Made by a program: the position numbers and the translations under genes. A stretch of DNA of 64,000 nt, from NCBI RefSeq assembly GCF_026151205.1, contig NC_087079.1, forward strand, positions 5,041,230 through 5,105,229, read 5' to 3'. Shown one piece after another: positions 21,001 through 24,000 of this stretch. Under the pieces are notes generated by a model, which was not told where the DNA came from, searched no databases, and worked only from the letters and a program-made list of their open reading frames with translations. How positions within the stretch are numbered: position 1 is the first letter of the stretch; the number at the start of each line of letters is the position of its first letter. The DNA comes from Bolinopsis microptera. Taxonomy: Eukaryota; Ctenophora; Tentaculata; Lobata; Bolinopsidae.

Positions 21001-24000
21001 TGAGAAAAGTTAACCGAGTTTAGCCTGGTACCATCGACAAGAATAATAATGAATTCCGAAAAAATGTCTGGCCCAATCTCATTAGACCATGACTATTAAC
21101 ATTAAGACAAGACCAACAAGTTGTTGTGAAGAAAGACAATATTATAATGATAATGTACAATTTCAGGCGGACACTGTACACCACACCAACCTTGGAACAC
21201 TAACTCTGACAACACACGGACACGTGGACACAACACACGGACACGTGGACACAACACACGAACACGTGGACACAACACACGGACACGTGGACACAACACA
21301 CGGACACACCGCCCGACCTGACAAACTAGTACTAACACCCGAGCAGAACAACACACCCTCTGATTATTACAACTGTTACAACTTCCCTGACCCTCCACCT
21401 AGACATGACCAGACACACTACGTGACGTCATCACACCAAGTGACGTCATCAAACCCTGAAACACATCCTGAAACACATCCTGAGTTTCGTGACAAACACC
21501 CAGTACTGAGTAGTGAGCAGTACTTGCAGTACACTGAAAGTGGTGATTACATTGATATGCATTGTCCTACAACAACAAACACCCCACGTGACGAGCAGGG
21601 CTATGTAAACAGTAGACCGGATTACTGTACTGATTACTCTTTAGCTACTGCTGGTAGTAGGAGAGAAGTTGTGGCACAAGCTCAGAGTTTCAGCCCAGAT
21701 AGTCAAGAGGCAGCAGGTCCGGGACACAGCCAGGAAGAGATACAGGACTCCTACACCCCAAACTTCAGTGAGGGTAGTGAAGGGACCAGACAACATGGTT
21801 ACTCGGACTATGTTAACATTCAGACTCTGATGTTACAAAGCCAGGATACAGAAACCATGTGTCCGCTGCGTGGCAGTGCTTATGTTAACTGGACACCTCC
21901 TCACATGACGTCACCACACCACGTGACGTCATCACACCACGTGATGTCACCTCAGGAGCCTAACTACAGCTCTGTTGTTAAAGACCTTGACACTCCCCAG
22001 GCTCCCTACGTGAATTGGCAGATAATAGAAGACAAGTGGCGGATTATAGAGGAGTCCCACAGACGAGCTAACAGCTCCAGTTTCGAGCACATTGAGGGTC
22101 AGATCAAGGGGATTTACGAGGATCTGTTTATTCCTGAGTCAGATCCTACACCTACATACCTGGAACCCTCGCACCCGGCTGAGGATCAGTACGCAGAGGA
22201 TCAGGCATCTGCTCAGTACGCGGAGGTAGTTCTAAGAGAGAGTAGCAGGACTCCTAGTAACAAGGAGAAGAGGAGAAGTAACTCCACACCTCATCGCTGG
22301 AGACCAGGTAGTAGCAGCAGTATTTACTCTCAAGCAGCCTACACGGAGGTGAAGATCCTACCTCCTAAACCCTGTGAAATAGACAACATTGAGTTTAACG
22401 AGACTGCATATCGAGGGTCACGTGACTTTGAGACTAGAAGCAGAGGGTCACGTGACTTTGAGACTAGAAGCAGGGTTCTCAGCTCCCACTCTGACACCGA
22501 ATTGTCCCCTAAACCCATCACCAGATCCAGAGGTATGGTAGGGATCACTGAGACGTGCTGGGTCTGGATTACCAGGACTGCGCCCTACTGGGTCGCTCAG
22601 ACGTAAGAATCCGACTGTCTTCACCCTGCTTAGGAACCTGACCAAGAGGTTTAGTGCTAGCGAGAGTGATTTGACCGCTATCGACAGCTCACCCGAGGTA
22701 ATGAGTCATTTTAGTGCTATGATTTATACGCTGACTTTTGACAACTTAATGGTCCTTGCCCCTTATCGTATCATAACATATCGTCAAAATTTTAATCGAT
22801 AAATTACACAAAAATACTTCTTCTTGGTGTAACACTTTGACGACTGACATTGAATTCTTAAGACCATTTTCCACGACAAACTTGCAAACCTGAATATGTG
22901 AGTGCAATTAAAGCTTGTTCGAATCAATTATGTACTAACAATCAACTAACAGAACGATCACAGCTAAAAATAACTGCTATTGTCGAGATACAATGTACTG
23001 TGGTTACAATACCGCATTACTTTCAACTGTCTGTGTTTTTGTCATGTAAATTTCGTACGATCTCAAATCATTCGGCTGCTCGGTTATTGGGTATAGCGAT
23101 GAAGAATGCGATTCTTCTGGCAAAGATCCAACACAATTGGGGTTCTTTCCCCCAAATCCCGGCGGAGGTTCCAGGAAAGTGGGGTGTGGAGAAGGCTAAG
23201 AACAACTGTTAGGCGAGGATGGGACAATGCCAGGGGTCCTAGGAGTTCTAGTGAACACCATAGGAGCAATGTACTGATTTATGTTTAATCTCGTGTTTGT
23301 TTGTTCGTGGCATCTCCGTCTTATCAATAGTTCTGTTGAATTCTTACGCAGGAACGCAACAGTTCACACTTGCAGAATGCAGTGTTTAAAAGCTTGGATT
23401 TGCAGAGGTTTTGTGAAACTAGATACCCTCAGAGCAGGACCCATTGATTAACCTGATAATTGTAATTGATCTCTCTCCCAGCACTTAACCTCTTTCAGTT
23501 TAAAATCAAAGTTACGTAATCGATTTTCTTGTCCAATAGATAAAACTCGGAACTTGTCATGAAATTGACAGGTTGAGATATTGTGCAACGACTGTAGCTA
23601 TGATCAAAATCTTTAATTGCTTTCTTGACACCATGTCTCATAGTTCATATTATCTTCTAATTGATTGCAGCCATCGATTTTCTGCAACATATTCAATCAA
23701 CTAAAAGCTCTGGTGATTCAATATTAAATTTTTATTCTGATGACTAAGTTCTATAAAAAGTAATCCTTTCAGAGACGACACAGTGCAGAACTATCACCAG
23801 CTCCCAATAAGGATAAAAAAGGTGGGTCTCAGATTATTCTCTTTAAAAACACTCACCTCAATGCTTTTAGTGCATTATTTTTCGAAAGGAAGTGGTATCA
23901 GGTATGTACAGTGTATACTGTTTAATACTGTATACTATTAAATTAAGGGTATACAAATAAACTATATATCTTAAACAATTCCTACTACTGGATATTCTGG

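What the first reader, a model, noticed from the sequence alone, without database searches (positions are those of the whole stretch)
21167..22697. A RhoGAP gene with a phosphotyrosine-scaffold exon
In one exon there are four Y-V-N motifs (Grb2 SH2 type), one YIDM (PI3K p85 type) and several YxxV/L sites, within 455 residues of otherwise disordered sequence. Codon phase joins it to a MyTH4-RhoGAP protein of the ARHGAP39/Vilse family. I know of no such dense tyrosine module in vertebrate ARHGAP39. If real, the protein would act as a docking platform (in the style of Gab/IRS) and a Rho regulator in one chain, linking tyrosine-kinase input to Rac/Cdc42 shut-off.
Basis: partly seen in the sequence, partly recalled or inferred. 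Interest (0 to 1): 0.75.

Follow-up and report, generated by a model that had tools for sequence, protein, structure and literature searches.

The report
Rho-GAP with a Grb2-docking linker
A comb-jelly-like animal's version of a known cell-shape regulator (Vilse/ARHGAP39) carries, in its floppy middle part, four copies of the short sequence that the growth-signal adaptor Grb2 recognises once it is phosphorylated, so the protein may tie tyrosine-kinase signals to the shutting-off of Rac; the sequence evidence is good, but nothing has been shown in a cell.

Summary
A 455-codon open exon (window 21167-22532) has four in-frame YVN motifs; none of 20,000 shuffles reaches four, and the copies use three codon spellings. 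YIDM and the YxxV/L sites are not above chance. The exon lies in the WW-to-MyTH4 linker of a Vilse/ARHGAP39-type gene: two WW domains 3-8 kb upstream of the window, MyTH4 (30.2-32.4 kb) and RhoGAP at 49.4-50.8 kb. Splice phases fit. The exon has no second copy in the assembly; its spacers hold dispersed minisatellite units that leave the YVN sites almost untouched. The genome encodes a Grb2-type SH2. The assembly fits the ctenophore Bolinopsis microptera (inferred). Best reading: a tetravalent Grb2-docking linker in an otherwise ordinary Vilse RhoGAP. Transcription as one chain, phosphorylation, binding and conservation are untested; no relatives were available.

The parts
21167..22532 (+). 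Tyrosine-motif exon (455 codons + 1 base): four YVN, one YIDM, YSSV/YEDL/YAEV/YTEV; phase 0 in, phase 1 out
   Evidence: no second copy found in own assembly
21602..21610 (+). YVN motif 1 (QGYVNSR), codons TAT GTA AAC
21809..21817 (+). YVN motif 2 (SDYVNIQ), codons TAT GTT AAC
21881..21889 (+). YVN motif 3 (SAYVNWT), codons TAT GTT AAC
22007..22015 (+). YVN motif 4 (APYVNWQ), codons TAC GTG AAT
21548..21559 (+). YIDM (p85-type YxxM), not above chance
21209..21313 (+). Tandem 21-nt repeat (TTHGHVD); related stretches elsewhere in the genome
21894..21954 (+). Piece of a dispersed genome minisatellite inside the exon (another at 21414-21458); one of its matches reaches back to 21888, the last two bases of YVN motif 3
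22533..22575 (+). Frame-change zone: possible 43-nt intron, or a one-base slip, or alternative splice sites (weak acceptor before 22542)
22576..22697 (+). Next coding piece in the other frame (GLRPTGSLRRKNPTVFTLLRNLTKRFSASESDLTAIDSSPE), phase 0 out; the frame is open from 22542
23773..23821 (+). 49-nt linker exon (phase 0 in, 1 out)
30205..30350 (+). Exon: end of linker and start of MyTH4 region (KHINRPRGFIKKVSIATMLAHSK)
30552..30624 (+). MyTH4 region exon
31687..31849 (+). MyTH4 exon
31960..32089 (+). MyTH4 exon
32248..32361 (+). MyTH4 exon (last)
49442..49599 (+). RhoGAP exon 1 (contains EGIFR, arginine finger)
49845..49967 (+). RhoGAP exon 2
50131..50275 (+). RhoGAP exon 3
50563..50757 (+). 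RhoGAP exon 4 and stop codon
5186..5378 (+). Candidate upstream linker exon (phase 0 in, 1 out)
5831..5973 (+). Candidate upstream linker exon (phase 1 in, 0 out)
2670..3077 (+). Candidate proline-rich linker exon (start uncertain; donor at 3077)
45485..45859 (+). Candidate alternative first exon inside the 17-kb intron (ATG, basic/disordered, phase 0 out)
48498..48842 (+). Candidate alternative exon, phase 0 in and out, could join RhoGAP exon 1

Best explanation
The exon is a real coding exon in the disordered linker of an ordinary Vilse/ARHGAP39 gene (WW-WW-linker-MyTH4-RhoGAP). In this lineage the linker has gained, or kept, four Grb2-type YVN motifs. Proposed working: a tyrosine kinase phosphorylates the YVN tyrosines; several Grb2-type adaptors bind, bringing Vilse (and adaptor SH3 partners such as SOS) to the active kinase; Vilse's RhoGAP domain then lowers Rac/Cdc42-GTP there, while the WW and MyTH4 domains give other contacts. 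Shown from sequence: the open exon, the motif excess, gene architecture, phase fit, and a Grb2-type SH2 in the genome. Inferred: joint transcription, phosphorylation, adaptor binding and any effect on GAP output.
For: Gene: RhoGAP E 1.5e-27 and MyTH4 E 1.2e-22 in the spliced model; WW E 1.5e-12, two stretches, from exons 3-8 kb upstream of the window on the same strand; MyTH4-RhoGAP aligns end to end with recalled human ARHGAP39, C-terminus included. Phases of 14 exons fit, with no stop before the end, if the 43-nt intron is assumed. Donor 22532, not used to make the matrix, is at the 99.5th percentile of 4268 GT sites; acceptor 21167 is at the 96.6th percentile when left out of the matrix. 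Motifs: 0 of 20,000 shuffles reach four YVN; in the window's other ORF pieces of 30 residues or more, 3 of 2408 Tyr are in YVN, against 4 of 23 here; three codon spellings among four copies. Not a multi-copy mobile piece: one full DNA match and one protein match, itself, in 264.65 Mb. Spacers carry dispersed minisatellite units while the YVN sites lie outside them, save for the last two bases of the third. Reader present: a Grb2-like SH2 with KYFLW at C6:6610267, and a second Grb2-like piece (YYIW) near C6:13203166.
Against: No transcript, phosphosite or relative was available. The frame changes at 22533-22542; read straight through, the Y frame stops at 22604-22606, before MyTH4. The codon-usage score of the Y exon is only modestly better in its own frame (0.240 against 0.111 and 0.175 bits per codon), and scores around the frame change do not decide. 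YxxM and YxxV/L are at chance level. No p85 iSH2 was found (a split coiled coil is easily missed). No PH, PTB or other receptor-recruiting domain was found in the frames scanned. YVN 4 (22007) sits in an ACGTGA context related to the repeats (82% over 17 nt).
Confidence: 0.5

Rival explanations
1. Ordinary fast-evolving disordered linker: the exon is coding and belongs to Vilse, but the YVN sites are chance or drifted repeats with no docking role.
For: The exon is rich in simple repeats, and pieces of it match dispersed minisatellites; YxxM, Yxx[VLI] and YxxP are at chance level; YVN 4 lies in an ACGTGA repeat-like context. Linker homology to the recalled human linker is not detectable (141 of 200 shuffles reach the score).
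Against: 0 of 20,000 shuffles give four YVN; all four occurrences of the nonamer in the exon are in frame; codons differ between copies; the minisatellite matches spare the YVN sites except for the last two bases of the third.
Confidence: 0.33
2. Alternative-splice switch: the 21167 acceptor and the region from 22542 are used by different transcripts, giving a Vilse with the tyrosine module (donor 22532 joining 30205 in phase 1, or reading on to the stop at 22604 as a GAP-less adaptor) and one without it.
For: Donor 22532 (phase 1 out) fits acceptor 30205 (phase 1 in) directly; 22542 follows an AG in phase 0, as 21167 does. Mouse Arhgap39 is alternatively spliced in frame, and rat has variants without the GAP domain (PMC6220574, passages).
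Against: The acceptor before 22542 scores at the 22nd percentile of all AG sites; a one-base assembly slip is simpler.
Confidence: 0.12
3. The tyrosine exon belongs to a separate upstream gene that ends near 22.6 kb, and Vilse's linker is elsewhere.
For: The first frame stops at 22604-22606; ATTAAA occurs at 22907.
Against: Two WW exons lie upstream and MyTH4-RhoGAP downstream on the same strand, with phase-compatible exons on both sides; in the + frames scanned between WW2 and MyTH4 the only domain over its cut-off is a hAT transposase (exon-by-exon scans of this kind can miss split domains).
Confidence: 0.05

Closest known systems
ARHGAP39 / Vilse / Porf-2 (fly Arhgap93B; the name CrossGAP is recalled)
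   Same: Two WW domains, long linker, MyTH4 directly followed by C-terminal RhoGAP with EGIFR. The known protein has several splice forms and two predicted SH2 motifs (PMC6220574, passages).
   Different: Linker here carries four YVN (Grb2 class); none in the human linker as recalled, which has YxxP and one YxxM (recalled, unverified).
Gab/DOS, IRS, FRS2, Dof docking proteins
   Same: Cluster of SH2-binding tyrosine motifs.
   Different: They use PH, PTB or DBB domains for recruitment and lack an enzyme domain (partly from PMC2747914 and PMC7260276 passages; partly recalled); this protein has WW, MyTH4 and a RhoGAP. [quoted passage not shown]
LAT family (LAT, LAB, LAX)
   Same: Multiple motifs that bind the Grb2 SH2 domain when phosphorylated (PMC3291652, start of abstract in the listing; that they are YxN sites is recalled).
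   Different: Transmembrane; no GAP domain (recalled).
SYDE2 and GC-GAP (ARHGAP32)
   Same: RhoGAPs linked to tyrosine signalling: SYDE2 has a predicted Grb2 motif YINS (PMC8918327, passages); GC-GAP was found as a Gab2 partner (PMC2747914, passages).
   Different: One predicted motif, or a separate docking protein, rather than four YVN in the same chain.

Membership tests
ARHGAP39/Vilse | Two N-terminal WW domains | tested here: met
   WW E 1.5e-12, two stretches, from exons at C8:5033391-5033492, 5037743-5037814 and 5038104-5038170, upstream of the window (joined by GT/AG sites and phase). Unspliced, the region gives only a sub-cut-off WW match (E 0.069)
ARHGAP39/Vilse | MyTH4 domain | tested here: met
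   E 1.2e-22, 80.7 bits
ARHGAP39/Vilse | C-terminal RhoGAP directly after MyTH4 | tested here: met
   E 1.5e-27, 96.8 bits; contiguous alignment with recalled human sequence to the last residue. Two open exons in the 17-kb intron could intervene in some transcripts
ARHGAP39/Vilse | Catalytic arginine finger | tested here: met
   EGIFR aligns with EGLYR of N-chimaerin, 2osa
ARHGAP39/Vilse | GAP activity on Rac/Cdc42 | not testable with these tools
   needs biochemistry
ARHGAP39/Vilse | WW to GAP on one transcript including the tyrosine exon | tested here: inconclusive
   phases fit, frame change at 22533-22542 unresolved; no cDNA
Gab/IRS/FRS2/Dof docking proteins | Cluster of SH2-binding tyrosine motifs | tested here: met
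   four YVN, 0 of 20,000 shuffles; sequence only
Gab/IRS/FRS2/Dof docking proteins | PH, PTB or DBB recruitment domain in the same protein | tested here: inconclusive
   none found in the assembled pieces or in the three + frames of C8:5021230 to window 51201, but a domain split over exons can be missed by such scans and the first exon of the gene was not identified
Gab/IRS/FRS2/Dof docking proteins | Inducible tyrosine phosphorylation | not testable with these tools
   needs phosphoproteomics
LAT-type Grb2 scaffold | Transmembrane segment | not tested
   no search for transmembrane segments was run

The most novel reading that the evidence does not exclude
In a ctenophore, a phylum in which Dof/BANK/BCAP-type docking proteins could not be identified (tested by others in Mnemiopsis), the Rac/Cdc42 GAP Vilse doubles as a tetravalent Grb2-docking scaffold: one chain that both assembles Grb2-SOS on an active tyrosine kinase and switches off Rac, with splicing near 22.53 kb able to separate the docking module from the GAP.
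Probability: 0.25. Interest if true: 0.65.

Novelty: new variant of a known kind. Interest (0 to 1): 0.42.

Why it matters
If true, it would be an unusual case where the docking step (Gab/LAT style) and Rho shut-off sit in one protein, in an animal lineage argued to be sister to all others (PMC10232365, title and start of abstract in the listing). It would bear on how tyrosine-kinase input was wired to the actin cytoskeleton before the familiar docking proteins appeared, and it shows how a disordered linker of a conserved RhoGAP can be rewired by short motifs.

Tried and rejected
Pfam on the tyrosine exon gave nothing real (NTP_transf_9, E 0.055, below its cut-off). A viral-contig scan for the MyTH4-RhoGAP protein found nothing. 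No relatives of the tyrosine exon could be reached, so conservation was not tested; the own assembly gives no second copy or haplotype (one search scores only the best candidates). COX1 search in the own genome: no match, so no mitochondrial check of the organism. Alignment of the exon with the recalled human linker: the best local match pairs SGDYIDM with SGDYSTM, but 141 of 200 shuffles score as high, so it is only a curiosity. A scan for missing exons in 5974-21166 (acceptor and donor scores above set thresholds, at least 45 nt) listed 10 non-overlapping candidates, of which one, 9439-9521, had a positive coding score; not included in the model. Structure prediction was not run: the conserved domains are split by introns, and the exon alone is expected to be disordered. 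The WW pattern search inside the window found none, which is why the upstream stretches were fetched.

Paper searches behind statements on what is in print: (all ten allowed). No title or abstract start in those (capped) listings mentions a YVN cluster in a Vilse/ARHGAP39 protein; (four of the five terms RhoGAP, YVN, tyrosine-phosphorylated, Grb2 SH2, scaffold) listed one paper, on FAK, with no occurrence of YVN. This is a limited search. No paper was read whole: passages only from PMC6220574, PMC8750479, PMC8918327, PMC10272126, PMC2747914, PMC10232365, PMC7260276 and PMC11797021.

Full report
What was checked. The exon claimed at 21167-22697 was read directly. Its start, 21167, follows a good acceptor: 99.7th percentile of 3841 AG sites with a matrix of 13 acceptors that includes it, 96.6th when it is left out. 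The frame stays open for 455 codons to the donor at 22532 (99.5th percentile of 4268 GT sites, not used to make the matrix). The whole stop-to-stop frame is 506 codons, with a chance of about 2e-11 under independent bases. The other two forward frames hold 21 and 50 stops. Codon usage, trained on about 1.6 kb of other exons, favours the frame only modestly (0.240 against 0.111 and 0.175 bits per codon).

Motifs. Tyrosines: 23 of 455 residues. Four are YVN (21602, 21809, 21881, 22007), one YYN, one YIDM, and YSSV, YEDL, YAEV, YTEV also occur. Against 20,000 residue shuffles, four YVN were never reached (mean 0.047), five YxN were reached 22 times, one YxxM 4519 times, five Yxx[VLI] 2946 times and two YxxP 11,681 times. 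So only the YxN class, and YVN in it, is remarkable. Controls from the same DNA agree: in other ORF pieces of at least 30 residues (55,694 residues), 3 of 2408 tyrosines are in YVN, against 4 of 23 here (binomial 2e-8), and all four TAYGTNAAY words in the exon are in frame. The copies are spelled TATGTAAAC, TATGTTAAC (twice) and TACGTGAAT. The motif to test was chosen after seeing it, so these figures overstate the surprise somewhat. That YxN is the Grb2 class and YxxM the p85 class is textbook knowledge.

Repeats. The exon also carries a 21-nt tandem repeat (TTHGHVD, 21209-21313) and 18-nt units. In the own genome, DNA from window 21100-22760 finds one full match, itself, plus 118 short matches, 34-110 bases each, to three places in the exon: the tandem repeat (21212-21309), 21414-21458 and about 21894-21954 (only the best candidates are scored, so the number is a lower bound). 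These are dispersed minisatellite units. The four YVN sites lie outside those pieces, except that one match reaches back to 21888, the last two bases of the third YVN; the fourth shares an ACGTGA context with one of the repeats. The protein search finds only the exon itself.

The gene. The spliced model downstream, 23773-50757, has MyTH4 (80.7 bits) and RhoGAP (96.8 bits). It aligns, with gaps of at most five residues, to the C-terminal part of human ARHGAP39 as I recall it, including the MyTH4-RhoGAP junction and the last residues (recalled sequence, unverified). Exons 30205-30350 and 30552-30624 supply the first part of the MyTH4 region. The arginine of EGIFR aligns with EGLYR of N-chimaerin. 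Inside the window no WW domain was found in the + frames scanned or by a pattern. The 80 kb upstream of the window were fetched, and tblastn with a recalled human WW region hit three exons at C8:5033391-5033492, 5037743-5037814 and 5038104-5038170, same strand. Spliced, they score as WW, E 1.5e-12, two stretches; unspliced, only a sub-cut-off WW match is seen (E 0.069). A fragment resembling the end of a protein kinase domain (E 7e-4, below its cut-off) lies near C8:5023611, so another gene may end there. From the first WW exon to the stop the gene is WW-WW-linker-MyTH4-RhoGAP over about 58.6 kb, and the tyrosine exon lies in the linker; the first exon was not identified. Phases of the 14 exons from 5186 to 50757 fit and give 1040 codons with a single stop, at the end, when the 43-nt intron is assumed. 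Two candidate linker exons (5186-5378, 5831-5973) and one proline-rich exon ending at 3077 fill the linker upstream.

The flaw. Reading straight on from 22532, the Y frame meets a stop at 22604-22606. The sequence from 22542 to 22697 is open in another frame and reads GSLRRAGSGLPGLRPTGSLRRKNPTVFTLLRNLTKRFSASESDLTAIDSSPE, ending at a good donor (98.1st percentile). Three ways out: a 43-nt intron (22533-22575; its acceptor is only at the 82nd percentile, and the shortest other intron in the model is 110 nt); a one-base slip in the assembly or allele; or alternative splicing, since the donor 22532 (phase 1) also fits the acceptor 30205 directly. Frame scores in this zone do not decide. If the genome is the one I infer, PacBio CLR and HiFi libraries are named among the data of that paper and the assembly was polished with short reads and purged of haplotigs (PMC10232365, passages), so a one-base slip is possible and a second allele would not be seen.

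The organism. The own assembly has 264.65 Mb in 232 contigs, and matches reach C1:25.96 Mb; the window has 38.7% GC. Bolinopsis microptera is listed as 265 Mb, 13 chromosomes, largest 26.2 Mb, 38.5% GC, 346 scaffolds (PMC11797021, passages). The fit is close except for the scaffold number; COX1 was not found. I take ctenophore, probably this species, as an inference.

Readers of the motif. SH2 domains: 33 matches, all over the cut-off, in the own genome (a lower bound). A GRB2 query (recalled human) finds an SH2 piece 54% identical over query residues 99-161 at C6:6610267, with DGEGKYFLWVMKF, which keeps the tryptophan that in Grb2 favours Asn at +2 (established knowledge), and a second Grb2-like piece near C6:13203166 with LYYIWLV. 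IRS-type PTB: two matches. p85 iSH2: none (weak test).

Compared with what is known. Fly Vilse binds Robo through its WW domains and inactivates Rac (PMC6220574, passages). Arhgap39 isoforms have two predicted SH2 motifs and one SH3 motif (same passages). The human linker as I recall it has 20 tyrosines in 593 residues, five YxxP, one YxxM and no YxN. So tyrosine motifs in this linker are not unique, but the Grb2 class in four copies looks special to this gene; I could compare with no other real sequence. SYDE2 has a predicted Grb2 motif (PMC8918327, passages), and GC-GAP was found as a Gab2 partner (PMC2747914, passages). Dof, BANK and BCAP could not be identified in Mnemiopsis (PMC7260276, passages).

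Judgement. Gene and exon: likely real (about 0.85). Working Grb2 docking: about even. Not filed under the Gab/IRS class (no PH/PTB/DBB found, test inconclusive), but it may work like one. New variant of a known kind.

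Noticed in passing
45485-45859 and 48498-48842 (+): Two open, basic, disordered exons inside the 17-kb intron between MyTH4 and RhoGAP; the first starts with ATG, both are phase 0 out and could make a short RhoGAP isoform without WW, tyrosine module or MyTH4. The 48842 donor and 48498 acceptor are only at the 77th and 82nd percentile, the 45859 donor at the 99th.
   Followed up: partly
26197-27513 (-): Long open frame in an intron of the gene that looks like a Penelope-type reverse transcriptase with a GIY-YIG-like end (recognised from memory; no Pfam match).
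   Followed up: partly
13540-13944 (+): hAT transposase dimerisation region (Pfam E 3e-05) in the intron before the tyrosine exon.
   Followed up: no
3821-4936 (+): Uninterrupted 371-codon frame (302 codons from an ATG) with KPKxTPD/PPKPK repeats and an acidic start, lying between two linker exons; own gene, retrocopy or alternative exon. No Pfam match for 4031-4933.
   Followed up: partly
19922-20371: 450 nt of pure GA repeat upstream of the tyrosine exon.
   Followed up: no
58082-62246 (+): Run of short cysteine-rich open pieces (CPAGTFS.., CPAGHYC..) suggesting a large GCC2/GCC3-like extracellular protein (recognised by eye; no family search run).
   Followed up: no
17555-17627 (-): tRNA gene or tRNA-derived element (Rfam, 43.3 bits).
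   Followed up: no
L026, L027 (contigs C102, C107): Two small contigs carry tandem SH2 exons; the two loci are 98% identical over 2831 bases, perhaps unpurged haplotype copies or a recent duplication.
   Followed up: partly
L018, about 2385-2498 (+): Fragment resembling the C-terminal end of a protein kinase domain (Pfam E 7e-4, below cut-off), about 10 kb upstream of the first WW exon.
   Followed up: no
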